Shown here piece after piece: positions 1,723 to 45,012 of a stretch of 55,006 nucleotides of DNA. The notes beneath the pieces were generated by a model. The model was not told the origin of the DNA and did not search any database. It saw only the letters and a list, made by a program, of their open reading frames with translations. The position numbers and the translations under genes were made by a program. The stretch is taken from assembly GCA_023245355.1 (NCBI GenBank), contig JAHFKN010000003.1, positions 1 through 55,006 on the forward strand, in the 5' to 3' direction. The stretch comes from Candidatus Gottesmanbacteria bacterium. GTDB lineage: Bacteria; Patescibacteriota; Microgenomatia; UBA10105; UBA927. Each line of letters begins with the position of its first letter. Within the stretch, counting starts at the first letter, position 1.

Positions 1723-2312
1723 GGGTTTCCTCCGTTTCCTTATAAAAGGTAAAACGGTTTGTACGAAGCGGTGCTAAAGCTAGCATCAGATCGCAATGTG
1801 ACTTATTACTAAGCCCTTACATGTGTCCTAATCGGCTGTGATCACAGGTGTTGGCCAACCGATTAGCCCGAAAAACCAAGTCGCAGTGCCTGGTCGCAGT
1901 GTCTGTCTTACCCGTACGGGCGGAATGAATTCCTCCCGGGGCAGCGGCAGATCGTTATTTGGTTGTCGAATCACCACCTCCTTTGTGTGATGGATGTCAG
2001 GATGATGAACTATATCTTTTATAAAAAAAGATAATCAGTTTGGATTGTTAAAATAAATTTCCCCGGTGTATAGGGAGGAATGTTCCTCCATATGCATCGG
2101 GGAAACGTATTACAATCACGCGTCACACGATACAGGTGTTTTTGTATTGTTATCCTTGCTGTTAATGAGCAACAATTCTGAATAATCAATCGGAGCATCG
2201 CATATTGATGCAGGATCAAGGTGCAGAATTCAGGCCGTATGCCCGAAAGGGGATTATAACAGACAAAATAGCCTGTTGCCAAGATACGTACTATAGGGTA
2301 TACTTATTCCCT

Positions 2313-23062: not shown

Positions 23063-24994
23063 ATGCCCAAAACATACACCGTTAAGGAAATTGCCGATAT
23101 ATTAGGGTTCAGCACGAACAGTATCTACACGTTCCTCAAAGAGAAGCGGATTAAAGGCGTACGCATCGGCAAAGGCAGATTCAGAATCCCTGAAGAAGAA
23201 TTATCGCGCATCCTGCATCTTTCTAAAAAACCGGTACGGGATGATACTCTACTTCACGTGTCCGATATTCTCTCTCCGTCTTTGATGTCTGCAGCAGGCG
23301 ATGCCGCGGTGTTTGTTCAGCGTGATCCCGGTTCTTCCCGTCATCAGAATGATACCGTTCTTATACCGAATCTGTTTGATTGGTTCGTCGGGTTAGCAGC
23401 GATTATTACCGGGGTCGCGCTGTTTATATTTAATGCGTCCATAAGCTCACCGAGTCTTTCAAGATTCACTGCATTGTTTCCGTTTATCAGGGTGGTGCTG
23501 ATTGCGGCAGGGTTGGGTGTTATCGTAAGCGGTTCATTGGTCCGTAACAGGATATGGCACGGAGTATTTTTACTCTCGTTATCACTGATGGGGTTTGCAA
23601 ACGTATTCGGGCTCGCACGCACGGGAGATATAGAAGGTGCGCTTATTTACGCAGGTATGGCGCTTGTGACCGGAATAGCCGTCGTCGTGCCGCTCGGGGG
23701 AGTCGTTTCTGTTCTCATCTACGCGACGCTTTTGGCTGTGTTTATCCCGGTAACTATGGTGTTTTTCCCATACGAAGAGCATTTACAGGCAGCTTCCGTA
23801 TTTTTTGGTATGCCGGTATTGACTATGGGCATGATTGCTTCCCTTGCTGCAGCCATCGTGATTTCAGGATTCTGGATAGGATACGCAAAGCACCGGGCAG
23901 CATTTATTGTATCAACTGCTTTTGCCGCAGCGTGTGATCTGGCATTAGCCATATGGTATGCCAATATGCAGTACTGGAGCAGGTCGTTTTTTATGGTCGT
24001 TGTCGGTTTTTTTACCGGATTGTTACCGTACTGGTGGCTGTTGCAGCAGCACGCCCTCCGGCGGCACAAAATTGTATTACACGGGATATTTGTTGCTATC
24101 GGCGGGATACTGCTGGTTACCATCCTTGTTATAAGTTTGCTGCAGCAAAATGTATGGAACTCCAAACAAATAGAATTTTTGAATAAAATTAAAATTGCCC
24201 AAAATGAACTTCAAAATGCCACGATGTCAGTGCAAAGTTCCATAACGGTGGCTTCGATGAACGCTGAGTTTGTCGATACGGTGGTGAAACAGGATTTGCC
24301 CCGGCTGACGGCCAACGCAAAGATTATATATGAAAGCAATCCTGATATACGCCGCCTCGTTTTTTTGGATAAAGACGGCACGGGCGTAGCCCTTTATCCG
24401 TACGGGACATTTGATGAACCGAATTTCGCGTACCGTGATTATTTCCAGAAGCCAAAGGCGACCGGCAAGCCGTACGTGTCCGATGTGTTTAAATCTCTGG
24501 TGGATCACGCGGGAAGATATGTCGCCGTCGTGTCCGTTCCGCTTCACGATAAGAAAGGGAATTTTGTCGGTGTTATTGCTGCATCTTTGGCGCTCGACAG
24601 ATTAGGCATGCACCTGGCGCAAATTGCGGCAGACAAGCAGGGAGAGTATTTTGTCGTAGTTGATGCAAAAGGGAAAATTCTGACGCATCCGGACGAAAAA
24701 TTAGTCGGTACACAGATACCGGTAACCGATCTTCTTGTCAAAGGGATAAACGGGGAAATGGGCGTGCAGCAAAGTACGTTTATCGACGGCTCGTACGGCA
24801 TGGTTGCCTATGCGAATGTCCCGGCGCTCCGTTGGGGGATTAGTCTGAGGGCTGTATCAAGTAATGTTTTTGAGCTTACAGCCATGACGATAACGGCGAT
24901 ATTCGGCGTAGTAACCGTTATCATGCTTTCCGCAATTGCGGTTATTGGCGTTGTATGTGGCCGGACCAGATTCGAAAAAGAAAGCGGACCATAA
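23063..24994 (+). CDS. Membrane-embedded one-component sensor: N-terminal MerR/excisionase HTH, multi-TM region, C-terminal dCache-like sensor plus TM
   Basis: [45 protein letters not shown]; many hydrophobic helices; [27 protein letters not shown]...[20 protein letters not shown]...[26 protein letters not shown] is dCache-like. Confidence 0.8.
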
Positions 24995-27900
24995 TGACGC
25001 CAACACAAAAACAAAAACTGATTCGGCTGAAATCCGCGCACGGCGGATTTCTGGCTGAAATGGGTTTTCCCCGACCTGGCGGGCCGGTTTCGTTTTGGGG
25101 GACACAGTTGATCCTGCCGGTGTTATTTTTTATCGTTTTTGGAGGAACCGCATGGGGGATAGTAACCGTCATACAGCAGAAGAATCTTCCGCAACCACAA
25201 GTCCGTGTAGCAGAGTCGGGCGCCGGTCCTACAATTCATGCGTTGACTCCGGCTGTCGTACGGGAAAGTAAATGGGCACGGCCGTTTGTGGTATTGGTTC
25301 AGCGGGCGGACGGATCGTTTGCCTACGCGTATGTAGAAAATGCGCTGGTCGCAAATGGTGCCTATGTGGGAGACATCACTGTACGGTATACCAACGGAGA
25401 GCACGGAATAGTCCGCTCCGAAAACGGCATATTCAGATTTTTTCTTACCAAACGGGGGCTTTCCGAGTCTGTCCGGATCATAGAGCCTGTTATCAGCGGG
25501 ATAACATTGCCTGATCATAGTATATTGTTGGCTAAATTTACCGACGGACGGATCATCGGTGAACAATTGACCGGACAGTTTACCGCGGTGACGGTATCTG
25601 AAAATCTGCAGATATCCGGCAACCTTTCGGCTGACGGTGAATTTATTTCGCTTACGCTGGAGCCGACGCTAAAATCTCTGGATACCGGAATGGCCATGAT
25701 TCAGCGGGAGGTACTGAAAATGGCGTTAGCAGGGACTGGTGATTCCAGCAGTGTCCTCGGTATTACGACAGATACGGCTGAAAATGTGAATATACCGATT
25801 TTGTCTTCAAATATAAGCTCAAACATGATAATCCAGCGGTTTGATGGAGAGGGAGTGATACGTATTGTTACAAGAAGTAACAATATAGATCAATCTATTA
25901 CAAACACGCAAAATCTGAATCTATCATCTGATTCAAATACGAATAATCAGTCTTCTCAGCTTGCGCTTAATCAGGGATTTTATCCCTCATCGGGCGGATC
26001 TGCAGGTGTTGCGGGGGCAACAGGCGCGACGGGAGCGCAAGGTATAAAAGGTGATTCCGGTGCAAACGGTTCTCAGGGTTCCAACGGAACAAATGGTCCG
26101 ACGGGGGCGAGCGGTGTAGGAGAATTAGGGCCGATCGGTCCGACAGGGGCTACCGGTACAGGGGGAAGCGGAAGCGGCGATCCCGGCGCAGATGGACCTA
26201 CCGGTTCAACAGGGGCTACCGGAATCACTGGTGTTACCGGAGTGTCAGGTCCGACAGGTGCTACAGGATCTACCGGCAACGCGGGTGCAGCCGGTCCGAC
26301 TGGAAATACAGGATCTACCGGAGGTGCAGGACCAACAGGATCGACAGGAGCAACGGGAACGGCGGGAGTCACCGGTCCGACGGGTTCTACCGGATCAACC
26401 GGTGTAGGAGGTGCAGCAGGACCTACAGGAGCAAGCGGAGCGACAGGTGTTGCAGGGGCCACCGGTCCGACGGGTTCTACCGGGGCAACTGGTATAGCAG
26501 GAGTCTCCGGTCCGACCGGTTCTACAGGGTCAACCGGTGCAATAGGCCCGACAGGCTCCACGGGATTAACAGGAATCAGCGGAGAAACCGGTCCGACGGG
26601 AGCAAGCGGTTCCACCGGTACACAGGGCGCAGTCGGTTTTTCAGGACCTACCGGTTCGACAGGTGCGACTGGTTCTGCGGGTGCCAATGGTCCGACGGGA
26701 GCGAGCGGTTCCACCGGTTCTCAAGGTGCTGCCGGACCGACAGGCTCTACAGGATCAACCGGAACTGCGGGTGCCAATGGTCCGACGGGAGCGAGCGGTT
26801 CCACCGGTTCTCAAGGTGTTGCCGGTCCTACCGGGAGTACGGGAGCAACAGGATCTGCAGGAGTAAGCGGACCTACAGGAAGTACAGGTTCTACAGGAGT
26901 CGCGGGAACAGCCGGTCCGACAGGATCGACAGGAACAACGGGTACGCAAGGTGCATCCGGTCCCACGGGAAGCACCGGATCGACCGGTAATCAAGGCAGT
27001 GTTGGTGTAAGTGGTCCCACGGGAAGCACCGGAGCTACTGGTGGTGTTGGCGTATCCGGGCCAACTGGTTCTACGGGGTCGACAGGAACAGTTGGTTCAA
27101 GCGGTCCGACCGGTTCTACAGGAACTACCGGACAAGGAGGGCCGACCGGAGCTACAGGCCCGACCGGTTCACAAGGCGGAGCAGCCGGAGCTTCAGGTCC
27201 CACAGGAACTACAGGCGCAACCGGTTTACAAGGCGCAAGCGGTCCGACCGGAGCTACAGGCCCGACGGGTGAAATCGGTGTGAGTGGTCCGACAGGATCC
27301 ACCGGTGCAACGGGGAGCGCCGGCTCTTCAGGCCCGACCGGTTCTACCGGATCCACAGGATCTATCGGAGTATCAGGCCCGACTGGTGCAAGTGGCGCAA
27401 CAGGAGCTGCCGGTGCTTCTGGTCCGACGGGAGCAAGCGGTGCAACCGGAACTGCCGGAAGTGCAGGCCCGACTGGTAGCACAGGCGCCACTGGTAATAT
27501 AGGTAGCTCAGGTCCTACCGGCAGCACTGGCGCTACCGGATCTGCCGGTACATCCGGCCCAACAGGTTCGACAGGATCTACAGGTTCTGCAGGTTCATCC
27601 GGTCCGACGGGATCTACCGGGGCAACGGGAAGTGTCGGAAGTTCCGGTCCGACAGGTTCTACCGGCTCCACCGGAAATCAAGGAAGTGTCGGAAGTTCCG
27701 GTCCGACGGGATCGACAGGTGCAACAGGAACTGTTGGTGAAAGCGGGCCAACAGGAAGCACCGGATCAGCCGGCACTGTCGGGAGTTCCGGACCCACTGG
27801 TTCAACAGGTGCTACCGGAGGGATTGGTGCTTCAGGTCCTACGGGAGCAACCGGATCAACAGGAACACAGGGTTCGGCAGGAATTGACGGCGCAGATGGC

Positions 27901-30900
27901 CCAACAGGTTCTACGGGAGCAACCGGAGGTATTGGCGCGAGTGGTCCCACAGGTTCAACAGGATCTACTGGCGCACAAGGATCTTTGGGTCCAACAGGTG
28001 CTACTGGTACAACGGGATCTCAAGGTTTACAAGGTTCTTCAGGCCCGACCGGATCTACGGGAGCAACCGGTGTTGCGGGAGTAACCGGGCCTACCGGGAG
28101 TACGGGTGCAACAGGAACACAAGGCTCTTCAGGCCCGACCGGTTCTACTGGTTCAACGGGAAGCATTGGTTTATCCGGTCCGACGGGAGCGAGCGGCTCC
28201 ACCGGTTCCGCAGGTCAGGCGGGAAGTTCCGGTCCTACCGGAAGTACGGGTCCGACCGGGGCTAGCGGAGTAAGCGGGCCAACCGGAAGTACAGGTGTCA
28301 CTGGTTCCGCCGGTGCTGCTGGTCCGACAGGTGCAAGTGGCGCCACGGGGACTGCCGGAGGTGCAGGCGTATCTGGTCCTACAGGTTCAACAGGTGCCAC
28401 AGGAAATGCCGGTGCAGCTGGTCCAACCGGAGCAAGCGGAGCCACAGGATCTGTTGGAGTATCAGGTCCCACGGGTTCAACAGGTGCCACTGGTTCTGCA
28501 GGTGCGAACGGTCCGACAGGTGCAAGCGGATCAACAGGAGCTCAGGGAAGTGCAGGCCCTACCGGTTCAACAGGAGCTACAGGAACTGCGGGAGCCGCCG
28601 GCCCGACAGGGTCTACCGGATCCACAGGAAATGCAGGAACAGCAGGCGTCAGTGGCCCAACGGGATCGACAGGTGCAACAGGAACTGTTGGTGAAAGCGG
28701 GCCAACAGGAAGCACCGGATCAGCCGGCACTGTCGGGAGTTCCGGACCTACGGGTTCAACCGGGTCCACCGGTACACAAGGTGTAAGTGGTCCGACCGGT
28801 TCAACAGGATCTACCGGAGGCATTGGTGTATCAGGTCCAACAGGTGCTACTGGTACAACGGGATCTCAGGGTTCACAAGGTTCTTCAGGCCCGACCGGAT
28901 CTACGGGATCTACAGGAAGCGCAGGAGCTGCCGGTGCTTCTGGTCCGACGGGAGCAAGCGGAGCGACGGGAACTGCCGGAAGTGCAGGTCCGACTGGTAG
29001 CACAGGTGCCACTGGTTCTGCAGGTGTTGCTGGCCCAACTGGCCCAACTGGTTCAACCGGTTCTACTGGTTCTGCTGGTCCGACGGGAGCAAGCGGAGCG
29101 ACGGGAACTGCCGGAAGCGCAGGTGTATCTGGTCCTACAGGCTCAACCGGCGCCACCGGTTTACAAGGTACAAGTGGTCCGACCGGTTCTACCGGATCCA
29201 CAGGATCTATCGGAGTATCAGGTCCGACAGGTGCAAGCGGTGCAACAGGAGCTGCCGGTGCTTCTGGTCCGACGGGAGCAAGCGGAGCCACAGGAACTGC
29301 CGGAAGTGCAGGTGTATCTGGTCCTACAGGCTCAACCGGTGCTACAGGAACTGCAGGAGCCGCCGGTCCAACGGGAGCAAGCGGAGCGACGGGAACTGCC
29401 GGAACCGCAGGTGTATCTGGTCCTACCGGTTCAACAGGAGCCACAGGAACTGCGGGAGCCGCCGGCCCGACAGGGTCTACCGGATCCACAGGAACTGCCG
29501 GAACCGCAGGTGTCAGTGGCCCAACGGGATCGACAGGTTCTACGGGATCCGCAGGTGCTGCAGGTCCGACAGGATCGACAGGAACAACAGGATCAAATGG
29601 TCCGACAGGGGCTACCGGAAGTACGGGATCCGTCGGAGCGATACCGGATAATTCTCTTGATGTGAGTAAATGGTCAGCAACCAGCGCGCTCAACATCAGT
29701 AAAGCAATTACATTCGGCGGGGCCGCATTAGGATTGACGTTCACCAATGACGGTTCAGGCAATTTTCTTGTCAATACATCGAGTACCGGAGATTTCCTTG
29801 TTCAGGACAATGGCGTCAATGCAATACAGGTTGACGGGAACGGCGGTGCGATCAATATCGGAGCAGCCGGTTTGGTAACGATAGATGCGGGTAGTGCCGG
29901 AGTGAACGTCGGCACGAGCGCCAATGCACAGACAGTTACTGTCGGTAACGTGACCGGAGCAACTGCCGTAAATATCAATACCGGTACGGGTGGCATAAAC
30001 TTCGGTGATAACGCAAACACGAAAACGATCGATATCGGAGGCGTAACCAACTCCGGAACGGATACGATAAATATCGCGACCCAGGGAACTGCCGCAGATG
30101 TTGTTACCATCGGAAACTCCAATGCATCAACGACCGTTGCCATCACCGGAGGAAGTGCGTGGTCCATAACAGCTGCAGGCGTACTGACGGTTGCATCCTG
30201 TACGGGCTGCGGCGGAGGGGGAGCGCCGGATACTGCAAGTTTTGTCGATACGTCACCCGCCGCAATGGCAGATAACGACACGACAGAACTGTTTAATGAT
30301 GCGACGAAACCAAACATTACGACGGATTCTACGTCAGCCACGGTATTGGTTTCCGTTGTCGTGACTGACGCATCAGCCACGAGTACCGACGATGAATTCG
30401 ATGCAATACGGATCGTGCGGGAAGTAAACGGTACTGACCCGTCGTGTTCCGCAGATCCCCAGGTGGGCTCTATCATGCAAGGAGGATTTGTCACCGCTGC
30501 GACTCACCCATGGAGCGCATCAGGAACATTTCTTGACAGTCCTGCTACCGCGGGTGTCATAAAATATACGGTCTGTACCAGTGCGCAGTCCGTAGGCACC
30601 GTTGATAATACTCCCACCAGTGTTGAGGTAACGTTGGTTGAACTGGGAGCCGACTTGGCAGAAAATTATTACACATCTGACGATTCAATCGGCCCGGGAG
30701 ATGTTGTCGTTATAGATCCGTCATTGCCTGCCGGAGTGAAGAAAGCCAGTACCCCGTATGATGCAAAAGCATTAGGCGTCGTTTCGACCGTTCCGGGAAT
30801 TACCTTAGATGATGCAATCGGCTTAGGATACGGTAGACCTGTTCCTGTGGCTCTGGCAGGAAGAATTCCGGTGAAAGTTTCAACAGAAAACGGCAGAGTC

Positions 30901-32226
30901 AAAGCAGGGGATTTGCTCAGCCCGTCGGCCATACCGGGAGTGGCAATGAAAGCGACTAAAGCAGGGCAGGTTATCGGTCAGGCGCTGCAGGATTTCAGCT
31001 ATCCGGACGGTGAAGTAGGCTTGGTCGTCGCGTTTGTGAAAACGGATTATTCCTTAGGTAGCAACCTCACCGACTTATTACCGGGACTTACTGCATCGCA
31101 GGAAGTGCCGCTTGGGAAACTCGCGCTGGCATACTTTATGTCCCAAAAGGAACAACTCCAAACCTCGGTTACTCTGTCGGAAATTGTGACTGACAGGGTT
31201 TCAGCAGGACTGGAAGTCATCTCTCCGAAAATCGTCGTTGACGAACTGATTGCGCGTTCCATCCAGCCGGTTGAAAAAGACCTGACAGTGACACTCGGTG
31301 CCGATGGCACGTTTATTCTGACCGGTGGTCGGACCGATGCGACGTCTTCGGCACAGCCGGTTATTACGTTTGACAGCTTCGGTAATGCGTTTTTTGCCGG
31401 AACCGTCACTGCGGATACACTATCCGCCAGACAGATTGTCGGATTAGACTTTGCCACACAGGCAAGTGTATCTGCGGAAGCATCCTCATCTGCAAATATA
31501 TTGTCTTTCATGTCTTTTATACAGGATTCGATCACATTTATTACCCGCGTCGTATTCCGGTCTCCGGCAGAGTTTTTGGCAGATGTCGTGTTCCGCGGAC
31601 GTGTGGTGTTTGATAGAGATACGGCCGGCCGGGCGGTAATTCCGGCCAGCACGTCTTCGGTGACCGTCGTGTTCGATCGTCCGTTTGCCGAGCCGCCGGT
31701 CGTCACGATTTCATTAACGCTTAAGGAAGCAACTGACAGCGCATTCTTAGCCGATGCAGTCAGGGCTGCCGTTGCAAGCGTTACCCGGGAGCAGTTTACT
31801 ATTATATTGGATACATCCGTACCCCGGGATCTTACATACAGCTGGGTAGCACTTGCCGTCACCAACGCCAGGAGTGTTGTCGGAAAAAGGCTGGGAGAAG
31901 GAGGAACTGTAGCAGGGAGTAATATAGAGAATATACCGTTGACCCCCACGGGTATGCCTGCAACTCCGGCACCGACATTTATCCCGACGATGACGCCGAC
32001 GCCTACCGTGATAGCAAGCAGTTCAGGTCAGACGGTTACGGTGCGCGCAAATGAGCCGGGATATGCGCGCATGTTTGAGAATCCTTCGGAAGGTGCATCA
32101 GAATCCGGCCGCATTCCGTCCGGTATGGTTGTATCGTATACAGAAATGCAGGACGGGTGGTATCATGTCATATACGAAGCACTTACAGGATGGTTGAGCG
32201 GAGCATCTGTTTCTGTGAATCCATAA
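24994..32226 (+). CDS. Giant collagen-like surface protein (2,410 aa): TM anchor, GPT/GST collagen-like stalk, tail-fibre-like beta region, peptidase-G2/IMC-like module, C-terminal SH3b-like domain
   Basis: Single ORF; start ATG overlaps preceding TAA (TAATG); GXY stalk; [24 protein letters not shown]...[43 protein letters not shown]...[16 protein letters not shown]. Confidence 0.88.
25996..29643 (+). repeat. Collagen-like minisatellite, predominantly 45-bp/15-aa units [15 protein letters not shown] with some 54-bp/18-aa variants
   Basis: Direct reading: about 1,216 aa of near-continuous G-X-Y; exact internal duplications such as 27706-27794 = 28660-28748 (89 bp) and 26675-26728 = 26765-26818 (54 bp). 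Confidence 0.95.
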
Positions 32227-39163: not shown

Positions 39164-39565
39164 ATGAAATATCATACAAGAGCAGCGTATTCATGGTTTA
39201 TACCCGGTATCGTCTTATTTATCGTTATGTCGTTTACATTCATAGCGCTCTACCTGGGTATGTCAGAGTCACAGGATGTGCGAAGCAGAGCTGCAGAGCC
39301 CGATGATACGCGAGAGATACCGAATTTTACAATTCCACATCCGTCGGGGGTCATATCGGGTACCCCCAATCCAATACCGAGTGTATCGGGATATGTGCGT
39401 ACTACGGGCGTGATCGTTAGCACGGGGGTTCCTGGCTGGTCACGGGGACCCTTACAGACACCAAGGCCGACACCCTCGATATCACCGACGATTCGTCCAT
39501 TTCCTCCCTGTAATATCGTGCTTACGTTTATGAGGCGCCCGTGTATACCACAGGTTGTAGATTAG
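39164..39565 (+). CDS. Membrane-anchored Pro/Thr/Ser-rich protein
   Basis: One TM, then TPRPTPSISPTIRPFPP-type sequence. Confidence 0.55.
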   Translation: MKYHTRAAYSWFIPGIVLFIVMSFTFIALYLGMSESQDVRSRAAEPDDTREIPNFTIPHPSGVISGTPNPIPSVSGYVRTTGVIVSTGVPGWSRGPLQTPRPTPSISPTIRPFPPCNIVLTFMRRPCIPQVVD

Positions 39566-40212
39566 AGTTTCTTGAGAGAAGCAATCATTGCATCGACTTC
39601 CGATAGAAGCGCATCTTCAGCGCCCAATGTCGTAGTAAGACTCATATGCCCGAATACCGTAGGCTGTCCGTAGTTTTCCGACCCTTTTTGACATACCGTA
39701 TACCCTTTGGTTGATCCTTTTGTGCCCCCGCGGCGTAATACGATGCCGTCAGAGGTCGTTATCGTGACGTACGTGTCATACCGGGAGCTTGGGCCTTCGA
39801 AGTCAGCATCAGACGGATACAGGCAGAGGGCTCCTCCGGTGGCAGCCTGGAAAATTTTAAGTTTTGTGGTCCCTTTGGTAAGTGTGAGCGTATCGGCCCA
39901 TGTACCCTCATTGGTTGTGATATGGTCAGGTATCCAGCCTTCAGGCACGGTCATCTGGTATTTGGTGAAACTGAGTCCTGATTCGGTTCCCAGGCCTGCT
40001 GTGATCGTTTTGGCCGGTTTAAATCCTTCCGGCAGGCTTTCCGGCTTCAGCCCGGGGTCCATCGTGGGTGTCGGCATGGCTGTGGTGGACGCAGCTCCGG
40101 AATTTGATCCCGGCTGGGAAGATTTCCCCAACGAATACGCGCCGTAGGCGATGCTGCCCAGGAGGAGGATAACGAGCACAATTTTGCCCAGGAGCGCAAA
40201 AAACTTTTCCAT
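39562..40212 (-). CDS. Membrane-anchored protein of unknown function
   Basis: N-terminal TM (LLGKIVLVILLLGSIAYGAYSLG), MPTPTMDP linker, globular C-terminus. Confidence 0.7.
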   Translation of the reverse strand: MEKFFALLGKIVLVILLLGSIAYGAYSLGKSSQPGSNSGAASTTAMPTPTMDPGLKPESLPEGFKPAKTITAGLGTESGLSFTKYQMTVPEGWIPDHITTNEGTWADTLTLTKGTTKLKIFQAATGGALCLYPSDADFEGPSSRYDTYVTITTSDGIVLRRGGTKGSTKGYTVCQKGSENYGQPTVFGHMSLTTTLGAEDALLSEVDAMIASLKKL

Positions 40213-40280
40213 CGACAATATTGTCACAGGTTGACGGGGTGTTGTCAAACGCGTCAGCCTATTTTAGCCGTGCGTTTTAG

Positions 40281-40309
40281 TTGTTTAAAGTTGAACTATA
40301 GGGTATAAT
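40281..40309 (+). promoter_or_regulatory. Sigma70-like promoter TTGTTT-N17-TATAAT for the leader of the ugd/GT2 operon
   Basis: Hexamers and 17-nt spacing read directly; next start codon is about 400 nt downstream. Confidence 0.65.
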
Positions 40310-40347
40310 ATCAATTCGCAAATAGTTACGCATTACCCACATCGCGG

Positions 40348-40642
40348 GTTTTGTCGTGGTTGTTTGCTCCTAATAGCCTATGGCTAAAAGGTAGCTCTTT
40401 AACAAAACGAGAATTAGAAAACCATCTGCTTCGTTATCATTTATCCTGTTTCCCCCTATCATGTTTAGCAAACTATAGGGTTTGCTTCGCTTGTTAGGGG
40501 GAAATAATAATTCTAAATTGGGGGATATATAACACGTTATCACTTCACTCATGTAAGAAAGGATAAATGTAGACAAAAGTAGATTACATACGATTATAGG
40601 AAGCTCTGGTATTTATACCCCAGAAACGGCGTCTATGCTTCC
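40348..40642 (+). ncRNA. Candidate structured leader or standalone ncRNA with three strong hairpin domains
   Basis: (1) GTTTTGT 40348-40354 / ACAAAAC 40402-40408 enclosing CCT-aa-TAGCC-tat-GGCTA-aa-AGG; (2) TTTCCCCCTA 40449-40458 / TAGGGGGAAA 40495-40504 enclosing AGCAAAC/GTTTGCT; (3) GGAAGC 40599-40604 / GCTTCC 40637-40642 enclosing GGTATTTATACC; no convincing ORF. Confidence 0.55.
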
Positions 40643-40710
40643 GCGGCTTTGTACCCCAAGGCCCAAGACGACACCATCAGTCAAACGAATAAGAGTAACA
40701 GGAGAGAACC

Positions 40711-41652
40711 ATGAAAATCGTAGTCGTAGGTTCAGGAATTGTAGGTCAGGCGACCGGTATCGGACTCAGCAAAGACCACCAGGTCACGTTTTTGGATATC
40801 AATCCAGAGGTCGTGGAGGCGTTATCGCTTCGCGGTTTCGACGCACGCTTGGTCACTCAGCCGGGAGAATTGCATTTCGACATCGTCATGCTGTGCGTAA
40901 GCACGCCATCCGCTGAAGACGGGTCAGTCAATCTGTCCCACATCAAGAGCGCGATGGATGACGTCGAGAAATTGCTTCTCAAAAACAACAAATGGTCACT
41001 TGTTGTCGTCCGTTCCACTGTGCCGCCCACAACCACAGAGCGCGTGCTCGTGCCATTGTTGGAGAGAAACGGCTTACTGCGCGGCAGGGATTTCGGTGTC
41101 TGCATGCAGCCCGAGTTTTTGCGCGCGAAAAGTTCGGTCGAAGATTTTGCCAACCCGTGGGTCACAGTCATCGGCGAATTGGATACCCGCTCAGGCGACC
41201 TGTTGACACAGGTATATCAGACCTTCAGCGGGAAGTTGTTCCGTGTATCCATTGCGGAAGCCGAAATGATCAAGTACGTCCATAATTTGCGAAACGCACT
41301 GGTTATCAGTTTTGCAAATGAAATGTGGTTGTTGAACCAGCACCTTGGTGAGGCTACCGATATCAACAAAGTGTTGAGTGTCGTGACAGTCTCTGCTGAG
41401 AGCGCATGGAATCCGCAATACGGAAGTGTCGGCGGTCAGCCATATGGCGGCACGTGCTTACCGAAGGATACGAACGGCTTGCTGCATTTTGCCGGAACGC
41501 ACGGGTTAAACCTTCCGCTTCTTGCCGCAGTCATCGCCGTCAATACAATCATGGAAGATCTCGCGACTCGTGGACAGGTTCCATCGGCGCAGATTGAAGG
41601 GCTTTGTTGGAAACCAGCACCCGTCATGATACAGGAGGTGAGCCGGGAATAA
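40711..41652 (+). CDS. UDP-glucose/GDP-mannose 6-dehydrogenase family, short form lacking the C-terminal nucleotide-sugar-binding domain
   Basis: MKIVVVGSGIVGQATGIGLSKDHQVTFLDINPEVVEAL, RSTVPPTTTERV, EAEMIKYVHNLRNALVISFANEM, catalytic YGGTCLPKDTNGL, ends at 313 aa. Confidence 0.88.
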   Translation: MKIVVVGSGIVGQATGIGLSKDHQVTFLDINPEVVEALSLRGFDARLVTQPGELHFDIVMLCVSTPSAEDGSVNLSHIKSAMDDVEKLLLKNNKWSLVVVRSTVPPTTTERVLVPLLERNGLLRGRDFGVCMQPEFLRAKSSVEDFANPWVTVIGELDTRSGDLLTQVYQTFSGKLFRVSIAEAEMIKYVHNLRNALVISFANEMWLLNQHLGEATDINKVLSVVTVSAESAWNPQYGSVGGQPYGGTCLPKDTNGLLHFAGTHGLNLPLLAAVIAVNTIMEDLATRGQVPSAQIEGLCWKPAPVMIQEVSRE

Positions 41653-41714
41653 ATAACCGCACGCGTATCTCTATCGATAACAAATCCTTGCAAATCTAGA
41701 CATAAGGAGTACGA

Positions 41715-43031
41715 ATGATTACGTTTATTTACGAATGGATTGTCGCTCTGACAAAGGGTTGGGGATCCGGGGATCGTGAAGCATTCCTGATATTGGTATC
41801 CGGACTGTGGATCCTCTGGATGTATGTGTTTATCGCCACGCGTTTCTATAAGCCGTGGGGTGCCCGTTTTAACAGCACGGTCTCGGTCATCGTTCCTGTC
41901 TACAAAGAAGATTGGAACACGTTTCTTGCTGTCATGGCATCCATTACCGATTCGCGGTACCCGATTTCCGAAATACTGGTGATCGGTGATGTTCGAGAGC
42001 CGCAGTTTGTCAGGATGTGTGAACGGCATTGGGCAACCGACCGGTTGATCCGCGTGCTGGAAGCACCCGCAGGCAAACGCGCCGCGATCCGCATGGGTGT
42101 GGAAGCCGCGACGTCAGAGATCGTGATGGTCATTGAAAGCGACACCTTTGCCGGTCCGGAAAGCATCGGGGAGCTTCTGCGTCCCTTTGCTGATCTTATG
42201 ATCGGTGGTGTTGTCGGCAAGCAGCTCATTTATGAGCCGCATTCGATCACTGCAGTTCTGAACAACTGGGCAGAGGCGATCAAATACGCCTTCATCATCC
42301 CGTTCCAGTCAATGACACGTTCCGTGACTGTGCTTGGCGGCCGGTGTGTTGCATACCGCAGAGCAGCCGTGCTGCCACTGATGGAGAGTCTGACTACGGA
42401 GAAATTCCTTGGCTTTCCCTGTCAGGCAGGTGACGACGGACGACTGACCAGCCTTCTTATGGCAACCGGATGGGGAGCGGTGTATCAAAGCACTGCCGAC
42501 TTCCGGACTGTCAGCCCTGAGACCTATTTCGGTTTGCTGATGCAGCGGCTCCGCTGGTTTCGAAATAGCTGCCGCCGCACGCTCCGCGCGTTTTTCTGCA
42601 TTCCGGAAAAACACGTGCCGAATGCTGACCGGTTCTGGGTCTATAAACGACCGCGGGCGCTGTACCAAATGGTCCGCACCTGGTTGGGCTCAGTGATCAT
42701 GATCATGCTGTGGTATCTGTTCATCAAGTCCGTTTGGATGGGATATTACTTCCACTGGAACACGTGGTTTGCCTCGCTCGGCGTCGTGCCGGTGTGGTGG
42801 ATCGTGGTCCGTGTGCTGGGAATTTCCATTCTGGGCGCCGTGATTACCCGCGCGATCAAGTCCTATCCGATTTTCCAGACGAACAGCCGATGGTGGCTGC
42901 TCGCATTGCCGTTGTTCCCGCTCCACATGAGTATCATGATGGTTGCGCTTCGGCTTATTGCCATTCCCACGATGTGGAAGAGTGGCTGGCTGTCGCGTAA
43001 ATACAGCGGAAAAGGAGGGTTCCAAAACTAA
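41715..43031 (+). CDS. Processive GT2 glycosyltransferase, hyaluronan-synthase-like
   Basis: VSVIVPVYKEDWNTF, VIESDTF, AGDDGRLTSLLM, QRLRWFRNSCRR plus flanking TM helices. Confidence 0.85.
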   Translation: MITFIYEWIVALTKGWGSGDREAFLILVSGLWILWMYVFIATRFYKPWGARFNSTVSVIVPVYKEDWNTFLAVMASITDSRYPISEILVIGDVREPQFVRMCERHWATDRLIRVLEAPAGKRAAIRMGVEAATSEIVMVIESDTFAGPESIGELLRPFADLMIGGVVGKQLIYEPHSITAVLNNWAEAIKYAFIIPFQSMTRSVTVLGGRCVAYRRAAVLPLMESLTTEKFLGFPCQAGDDGRLTSLLMATGWGAVYQSTADFRTVSPETYFGLLMQRLRWFRNSCRRTLRAFFCIPEKHVPNADRFWVYKRPRALYQMVRTWLGSVIMIMLWYLFIKSVWMGYYFHWNTWFASLGVVPVWWIVVRVLGISILGAVITRAIKSYPIFQTNSRWWLLALPLFPLHMSIMMVALRLIAIPTMWKSGWLSRKYSGKGGFQN

Positions 43032-43067
43032 TCTCAGGTTAGTCATAACATGAGAACAATCGGAGGA

Positions 43068-43109
43068 ACCAGGGTACCCTGCATTGCACGAGAGGGCAGG
43101 GACCCTGGT
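43068..43109 (+). other. Intercistronic 14-bp hairpin
   Basis: ACCAGGGT-a-CCCTGC-(13 nt)-GCAGGG-ACCCTGGT, single bulge, no U tract after it. Confidence 0.75.
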
Positions 43110-43141
43110 AACTCTTATCTCCAATACGAGGAGGAAGGTCA

Positions 43142-44791
43142 ATGAAACGAAAAGACGTACTTCCGTTACTCATCATCGGTGTGTTCGTAACGCTCCTGTT
43201 GCGCGGCACCCTGAGAGCGGGATTTCCTGACTGGTTCGAAAACTACGGCAGTTACATGTCGCAGGTAATGTTATTGCGTGACAGTGGAGGCACCTGGTTT
43301 ACGCAGAATTGGTATTTCGGATATGAAATAGGCAGATACTACCCGCCGATGGCAATTCTTGAAACGCTGCTTATCGGTAACATAGTAGGAGACTACTCAC
43401 TTGCGTTCAATCTGCTGGCGTACGCGGCGTTTATCGGTATGGGGATAGCATTCTATGCATTCCTGCGGCGAGAATTCGAGAGCGAATGGGCGACATTGGT
43501 TGCCGTTCTGCTTTTTATAACGAGCCACAGCGTCATCACCGGCGTGCAGGGATTTTACTGGGAAGTGCCGCATCTTATCGGATTTGCACTTATTCCGGTT
43601 CTGCTCATCAACGTCCGTTCCGCACTCCAAAAGCAGTCGCTGCTCGCTTCATGTATTGCCGGTTTGGTGTTCGGGGCTATTGTGCTCCACAACATTCTGG
43701 CAGGCACGGAAGCGGTCATATTTACGGCACTCTATGTCGTGAAGATGATGCTAAGTGGTTGGAGACCGACGAAGCAGACTGTGTATCAAGTGATGCTGAT
43801 GGGTATGAGCGTTATCGCGGTTGCTGGTTGGTGGCTCGTACCGGCAATATTCCCGGAAGGTCTGGGTATATATACCAAGAATGAGAGTTTTTCTTTGCAG
43901 GGATTAGTGACGCTGTCGGGTGAAGCCGAAAAGCATGATCATTTTTACCTGCTGAGTATTCTCTCAGTGCCGGGCGTTCTGGCTATCGCAGGATTGCTGT
44001 CGTTCATCCGGAAGCCGAAAGCGGTTGATTGGTTTGCGATCCTTATCCTGGGTGTAGCGACACTCTTCGTAGTTATACCCGCGCCGCAAGGCTGGAGATA
44101 TATCGTGGACATGTCGTTGGGAATTTCCATCCTGAGCGGACGGCTTTTCGAGCGTCTGGTGCTCTCAAGCCGGAAGTATGCCAACGTCATCGCTGTAGTG
44201 ATAGGTGTCGCCGTTTTGCTTCATGCGGGCAGTGTCGCTGACCGGGTGGGCTCACGGATCCAGGTAAGTCAGACGTCGTATAAGAGCTCGATCGTGTACA
44301 TCGTCGAGAGTGCGGTCCGCGCTATGATGAAGCCCGATGATGTCGTATACATTGCGTATGCAGACGGATTCCGCGGCGGACCTATGGCGTTTAACCTGTT
44401 CTTTCCCGATGCGGCTCAAGTTGGTGGCGGATCATTCGTCGGGAACCGCAGTGAAGATGCCAAACAAATCGGAGCGTATGTAAAAAGCGGAGACATGCCG
44501 GAGTCTCTGGACAATCTGCTTAAGGATCACGGAGTAACCTATCTTGTCGTCAACCGGGTAAAACTGGAAAAGACGGATGCGTTCGATGTGCTTCTGAGGC
44601 GGTATCAGATCGTGTACGAGTATGACTATATGACCGTGTTATACACGGGATATCATGCTGCGCAGCCCGTTGTTTCGTACGAGTATGCAAATATGTGGCG
44701 CGTGGTGGGTATCATCACAAGTTTACTTGCCGTGTTGGTCATAGAATTCTATCTGATCCAACGTGATATGCACCAACTGGTACGACGCTGA
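43142..44791 (+). CDS. Polytopic membrane protein, GT-C/6-pyruvoyl-tetrahydropterin-synthase-related-like
   Basis: About ten hydrophobic helices, early acidic loop GFPDWFENYGSYMSQ; GAGGAGGAAGG SD. Confidence 0.7.
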   Translation: MKRKDVLPLLIIGVFVTLLLRGTLRAGFPDWFENYGSYMSQVMLLRDSGGTWFTQNWYFGYEIGRYYPPMAILETLLIGNIVGDYSLAFNLLAYAAFIGMGIAFYAFLRREFESEWATLVAVLLFITSHSVITGVQGFYWEVPHLIGFALIPVLLINVRSALQKQSLLASCIAGLVFGAIVLHNILAGTEAVIFTALYVVKMMLSGWRPTKQTVYQVMLMGMSVIAVAGWWLVPAIFPEGLGIYTKNESFSLQGLVTLSGEAEKHDHFYLLSILSVPGVLAIAGLLSFIRKPKAVDWFAILILGVATLFVVIPAPQGWRYIVDMSLGISILSGRLFERLVLSSRKYANVIAVVIGVAVLLHAGSVADRVGSRIQVSQTSYKSSIVYIVESAVRAMMKPDDVVYIAYADGFRGGPMAFNLFFPDAAQVGGGSFVGNRSEDAKQIGAYVKSGDMPESLDNLLKDHGVTYLVVNRVKLEKTDAFDVLLRRYQIVYEYDYMTVLYTGYHAAQPVVSYEYANMWRVVGIITSLLAVLVIEFYLIQRDMHQLVRR

Positions 44792-44801
44792 TCGGTTTTC
44801 A

Positions 44802-44839
44802 AAATCAGGAGATTCGCTCTTTCAGGAGTTTCCTGATTT
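44802..44839 (+). terminator. Possible terminator/hairpin after the polysaccharide operon
   Basis: AAATCAGGA 44802-44810 / TCCTGATTT 44831-44839 followed by gtcttt. Confidence 0.5.
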
Positions 44840-44884
44840 GTCTTTATTCGTGGTGTTATTGCCACACTTAATTCTCGTTTTACC

Positions 44885-45005
44885 GCGGTGGATGCGGTCT
44901 TTTGTTTATGTCGCCCCCTTTTTCAGGGCACCTATTCAAAAGACCACAAACTTAATCCACCGCATTCCTGAGTCGTGTATGAAGTATACGCGCCTGAGGA
45001 ATGCG
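44885..45005. other. Tandem long stem-loops between convergent operons (candidate structured RNA or DNA element)
   Basis: GCGGTGGAT 44885-44893 / ATCCACCGC 44955-44963 enclosing GGTCTTTTG 44896-44904 / CAAAAGACC 44937-44945; then CGCATTCCT 44961-44969 / AGGAATGCG 44997-45005. Confidence 0.6.
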
Positions 45006-45012
45006 TACAGAC

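What the first reader, a model, noticed from the sequence alone, without database searches (positions are those of the whole stretch)
40310..40710. Roughly 400-nt structured leader or ncRNA before the UGDH/HAS-like operon
A clear promoter (TTGTTT-N17-TATAAT) is followed by about 400 nt without a credible ORF. It contains three independent nested hairpins: 40348-40408, 40449-40504 with an inner 7-bp hairpin, and 40599-40642. I see no tmRNA, RNase P, SRP or 6S hallmarks. It could be a novel riboswitch or regulatory leader controlling polysaccharide synthesis, or a standalone RNA.
Basis: partly seen in the sequence, partly recalled or inferred. Interest (0 to 1): 0.65.

Follow-up and report, generated by a model that had tools for sequence, protein, structure and literature searches.

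The report
Structured leader of an acquired operon
In front of a sugar-polymer operon that this tiny bacterium carries and its sequenced sister species lack, there is a 400-base stretch, probably the start of the messenger RNA, that can fold into unusually stable stems; no relative of it was found in the genomes searched, so there is no evidence that it senses anything.

Summary
A perfect -10 (TATAAT) and a weak -35 stand at 40281-40309, no credible ORF lies in 40310-40710, and a good Shine-Dalgarno precedes the ATG at 40711. Congeners show the empty site: promoter, leader, short UGDH, HAS-like GT2, membrane protein and 3' hairpins form one insert, about 40251-45008. So the leader travels with the operon, and no intrinsic terminator separates them. 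But nothing similar was found: no Rfam match, no DNA match in congeners, phages or plasmids, no covariance-model match in 280 class and 380 phylum genomes or beside 53 homologous loci. Covariation cannot be tested. Best reading: a lineage-specific structured 5' UTR, perhaps an mRNA stabiliser. A riboswitch is unsupported; a switch-like leader:CDS pairing is at chance level.

The parts
40281..40309 (+). promoter-like site TTGTTT-N17-TATAAT; predicted transcription start about 40316
   Evidence: sequence; only such site in the window, 0.45 expected; not proven
40318..40367 (+). 5'-terminal hairpin, 19 pairs (13+2+4) incl. 4 G-U and no C-A mismatch, beginning about 2 nt after the predicted start site
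   Evidence: pair probability at least 0.86
40369..40391 (+). small hairpin CCU..UAGCC-UAU-GGCUA..AGG
   Evidence: pair probability 0.71-0.93
40424..40584 (+). core stem: closing helices 40424-40431/40577-40584, 40433-40435/40572-40574, 40438-40447/40560-40569 stacked on hairpin 40448-40505, with a one-sided 54-nt stretch 40506-40559
   Evidence: z -7.1 to -7.8 on + with 100 shuffles, about -3.4 to -4.1 on -; -6.0 with 16 shuffles
   Evidence: pair probability 0.92-0.97; inverted repeat I1
   Evidence: pair probability 0.84-0.94 but segment z -0.26
40700..40704 (+). Shine-Dalgarno AGGAG, 6 nt before ATG
   Evidence: sequence
40711..41652 (+). short (313 aa) nucleotide-sugar dehydrogenase, UGDH-like, NAD and central domains only
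41715..43031 (+). GT2 glycosyltransferase, HAS/NodC-like
43142..44791 (+). membrane protein, PTPS_related (PF10131)
40251..45008 (.). insert absent from congeners: promoter, leader, three genes and 3' hairpins, between a conserved minus-strand gene and rplL
   Evidence: empty-site comparison

Best explanation
40316-40710 is the 5' untranslated leader of the UGDH/GT2/membrane-protein mRNA, and it sits in the genome as part of the same inserted segment as that operon. Shown: promoter-like site, no ORF, better-than-chance folding in 40318-40367 and 40424-40584, no intrinsic terminator before the ATG, leader inside the inserted segment. Inferred: transcription starts near 40316 and runs into UGDH; the hairpin that begins about 2 nt from the 5' end protects the mRNA from 5'-end-dependent decay; the long core stem is a stable, largely constitutive spacer or protein-binding element ahead of the ribosome site. 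No ligand-driven switch is proposed.
For: Fold z -5.2 overall and -7 to -8 for the core on the + strand, among the three best-folding places in 55 kb. In the two robust elements 9 pairs are G-U and no opposed C-A occurs, which fits pairing kept for RNA of the + strand rather than a DNA palindrome (modest, one sequence). The hairpin start coincides with the predicted start site. Good Shine-Dalgarno at the downstream ATG and no U-tract terminator that would end the RNA before the ORF. Empty-site comparison puts the left junction at about 40250, upstream of the promoter.
Against: No homologue of any kind, so neither conservation nor covariation supports the fold. Other strongly folded intergenic places occur in the same window (44924, 2024) and upstream of homologous operons for unrelated reasons, so a strong fold alone is not proof of function. 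The -35 is weak. No expression data. The two G of the Shine-Dalgarno are predicted largely paired, so accessibility is not clean. The stabiliser role is inference from position only.
Confidence: 0.5

Rival explanations
1. Riboswitch or other ligand-sensing leader that tunes polysaccharide synthesis by switching pairing near the ribosome site.
For: Position ahead of a sugar-nucleotide operon; duplicated strands GGGGGAAATA/GGGGGATATA could compete for CCCCC at 40453-40457; a leader:CDS helix between about 40368-40393 and the first codons is predicted.
Against: No Rfam class, no homologue among 53 homologous loci or more than 600 genomes. The leader:CDS helix is no stronger than with shuffled CDS (152 of 500 as good) or with other coding 50-mers (96 of 241). 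Forcing the alternative C5:G5 helix costs about 17 kcal/mol. No terminator/antiterminator pair.
Confidence: 0.1
2. Standalone small RNA of about 270-300 nt, transcribed from the same promoter, with the operon driven by another promoter.
For: The two robust elements end at 40584; the last 110 nt are not structured beyond chance.
Against: No intrinsic terminator after 40584 on the + strand; no homologue as a free RNA.
Confidence: 0.12
3. Non-functional: an AT-rich junction region with inverted-repeat remnants of the insertion or of a decayed small mobile element; the stems are incidental.
For: Region lies at one end of an insert; the core closing stem resembles an imperfect terminal repeat; the other end of the insert is also strongly folded; leader G+C 0.29-0.42 against 0.50 for the window.
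Against: No other copy in the genome; no flanking duplication seen; G-U without C-A fits RNA of the + strand; the stem begins at the predicted start site.
Confidence: 0.28

Closest known systems
5'-terminal stem-loops that stabilise bacterial mRNAs (ompA type; from general knowledge)
   Same: a stable hairpin starting within a few nt of the predicted 5' end, long leader, ribosome site downstream
   Different: start site not mapped, no half-life data, no sequence relation
Long structured leaders and orphan riboswitch candidates found by comparative intergenic scans (e.g. PMC8632094, PMC2864571)
   Same: long non-coding, structured stretch ahead of a biosynthetic operon
   Different: those are recognised by homologues with covariation; this one has a single known sequence
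Rfam classes (4227 models)
   Same: nothing
   Different: no match in the leader at gathering threshold; only meaningless, mostly eukaryotic matches at E 1-9

Membership tests
Riboswitch / conserved structured-RNA class | match to a known class | tested here: not met
   Rfam 15, gathering and E up to 10
Riboswitch / conserved structured-RNA class | homologues with covarying pairs | tested here: not met
   no homologue; covariation itself cannot be counted on one sequence
Riboswitch / conserved structured-RNA class | expression platform (terminator/antiterminator or ribosome-site sequestration) | tested here: inconclusive
   no terminator; leader:CDS pairing at chance level and Shine-Dalgarno only partly paired
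Riboswitch / conserved structured-RNA class | ligand binding | not testable with these tools
   needs in-line probing
tmRNA / RNase P RNA | match to the family model | tested here: not met
   no match in the leader; the genome's RNase P RNA is at C2:1114-1451 (E 1.9e-22, below the curated cut-off) and its tmRNA at C9:140667-141085
Structured mRNA leader | promoter, non-coding stretch, better-than-chance fold, ribosome site and ORF in one unit | tested here: met
   transcription itself not tested
ompA-type 5' stabiliser | hairpin at the mapped 5' end that lengthens half-life | not tested
   position fits the predicted start only; no transcript data
Small mobile element (MITE-like) | more than one copy, target duplication | tested here: not met
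   single copy in own genome; no duplication at the insert ends

The most novel reading that the evidence does not exclude
An orphan, lineage-restricted cis-regulatory RNA that entered with a polysaccharide operon and controls it by a fold not represented in Rfam.
Probability: 0.12. Interest if true: 0.5.

Novelty: new member of a known kind. Interest (0 to 1): 0.22.

Why it matters
Little is known of RNA-level regulation in Patescibacteria. A structured leader that arrives with an acquired operon would show that such elements move as a unit with their genes. As it stands the case is a single sequence without conservation, so its weight is small; its use is as a well-bounded candidate for transcript mapping and probing.

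Tried and rejected
Rfam at both thresholds: nothing. BLAST in phages and plasmids: only 30-36 nt chance matches. Leader DNA in 59 relatives and a single-sequence covariance model R1 of the core in 24 family, 280 class and 380 phylum genomes (34, 25, 50), in six genomes with the nearest UGDH genes and in 53 UGDH loci: own copy only; the best others (E 0.017-0.6) are short, gapped or partial and were not believed. Caveat: R1 rests on one sequence and the large scans use strict filters, so remote relatives may be missed. blastn/nhmmer of the leader against 72 upstream regions: no more than with the reversed leader. Exact patterns in viral contigs: none. Strong folds upstream of L049, L072 and others were inspected: terminator-like hairpins or repeat-like hairpins, and in L049 a separate ribosome-site-covering hairpin, not this RNA. 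A leader:CDS 'switch' helix looked attractive but is at chance level. A mobile-element reading of the insert (terminal repeats, target duplication) was sought and not found; a 13-nt inverted match 40404-40416 / 44869-44881 (44) was left as probably chance.

Full report
Setting. The window is part of a 1.28-Mb genome (12 contigs). Several of its class relatives are the same contigs as named records of Daviesbacteria, Levybacteria, Roizmanbacteria and Amesbacteria (compare), which places the genome among Patescibacteria of the Microgenomatia type (inference). The finding lies between a conserved minus-strand gene (39562-40212) and a UGDH-like gene (40711-41652, +).

Observation. A -10 of 6/6 and a -35 of 3/6 with 17-nt spacing is the only TTG-N20-TATAAT of the window, 0.45 expected: plausible, not proof. 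There is no credible ORF in 40310-40710. AGGAG at 40700-40704 stands 6 nt before the ATG, and that start is right because the protein aligns from its first residues with relatives.

Structure. The 401 nt fold at -117.1 kcal/mol, z -5.2, none of 100 shuffles as good. The signal sits in two parts: a hairpin 40318-40367 and a long stem 40424-40584. The latter has closing helices of 8, 3 and 10 pairs stacked directly on the 40448-40505 hairpin, with a 54-nt one-sided stretch 40506-40559. Its z is -7 to -8 on + and -3.4 to -4.1 on -. Scanning the whole window at 161 nt, 9 of 1098 windows had z at or below -5, and the core is one of the three best places, with 44924 and 2024. In the robust helices 9 pairs are G-U and there is no C-A opposition, which favours an RNA of the + strand over a DNA palindrome; with one sequence this is only suggestive.

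Context from the empty site. The flanking gene 39562-40212 is present in all six congeners searched, at 40-75% identity. In five of them rplL follows where the insert stands here (directly in three, with a short or duplicated piece between in two); in the sixth the contig ends just past the gene. None of the six has the leader DNA or a close copy of this UGDH (34-35% identity at best). Alignment of the joined flanks with three congeners shows the junctions at about 40250 and 45008. So promoter, leader, UGDH, GT2, PF10131 membrane protein and a strongly folded 3' region form one 4.76-kb insert, gained here or lost in the others; gain is simpler. No transposase, terminal repeat or target duplication was seen. 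The nearest UGDH relatives (53-54%) are in an Ardenticatenaceae (Chloroflexota) genome, a Patescibacteria genome and a Dehalococcoidales genome, and UGDH is beside a GT2 of this kind in most of the closest loci. The leader is not shared: many relatives have only a short gap before UGDH, and none matches by sequence or model.

What it does. The simplest reading that fits is a long 5' UTR. Transcription would begin near 40316; the first hairpin begins 2 nt later, the arrangement known to protect mRNAs from 5'-dependent decay (general knowledge; not tested here). No terminator lies between the structured part and UGDH. Two switch-like ideas were tested and fail: the leader:CDS helix is no stronger than for shuffled CDS, and the alternative C5:G5 helix is about 17 kcal/mol worse.

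Comparison with known RNAs. No Rfam class matches. RNase P RNA and tmRNA are found elsewhere in this genome, so this is not a divergent copy of either. New riboswitch classes are recognised by homologues with covariation (for example PMC8632094, PMC2864571; abstracts); that defining evidence is absent. It should be kept as a structured-leader candidate of one lineage.

Verdict. Real sequence features and a better-than-chance fold; probable leader of an acquired operon; no support for a riboswitch. Interest low to modest.

Noticed in passing
window 40711-41652; L033-L042, L049-L094: A family of short (about 300-320 aa) UGDH-like dehydrogenases with the NAD and central domains (PF03721, PF00984) and the GxCLPKD cysteine motif but no match to the usual C-terminal substrate domain; it lies beside a HAS-like GT2 in most of the closest loci, across Patescibacteria and Chloroflexota.
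   Followed up: partly
window 40251-45008: 4.76-kb insert between a conserved gene and rplL, absent from congeners, with no transposase, terminal repeat or target duplication.
   Followed up: yes
window 44880-45005: Two strong hairpins at the 3' end of the insert, the best-folding place of the window (z about -9 on -, -7 on +).
   Followed up: partly
window 2057-2104: Very stable hairpin (TTTCCCCGGTGTATAGGGAGGAA...TTCCTCCATATGCATCGGGGAAA) about 190 nt upstream of an adenylate-kinase-like gene.
   Followed up: no
L049 2875-3000: Upstream of the nearest UGDH relative (Chloroflexota) a long hairpin pairs CCTAATTGTG with CACAATTAGGGAG and so covers the ribosome site; a different leader from the one here.
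   Followed up: no
window 24955-32226: 2423-aa protein with very long GPTGSTG-type collagen-like repeats.
   Followed up: no
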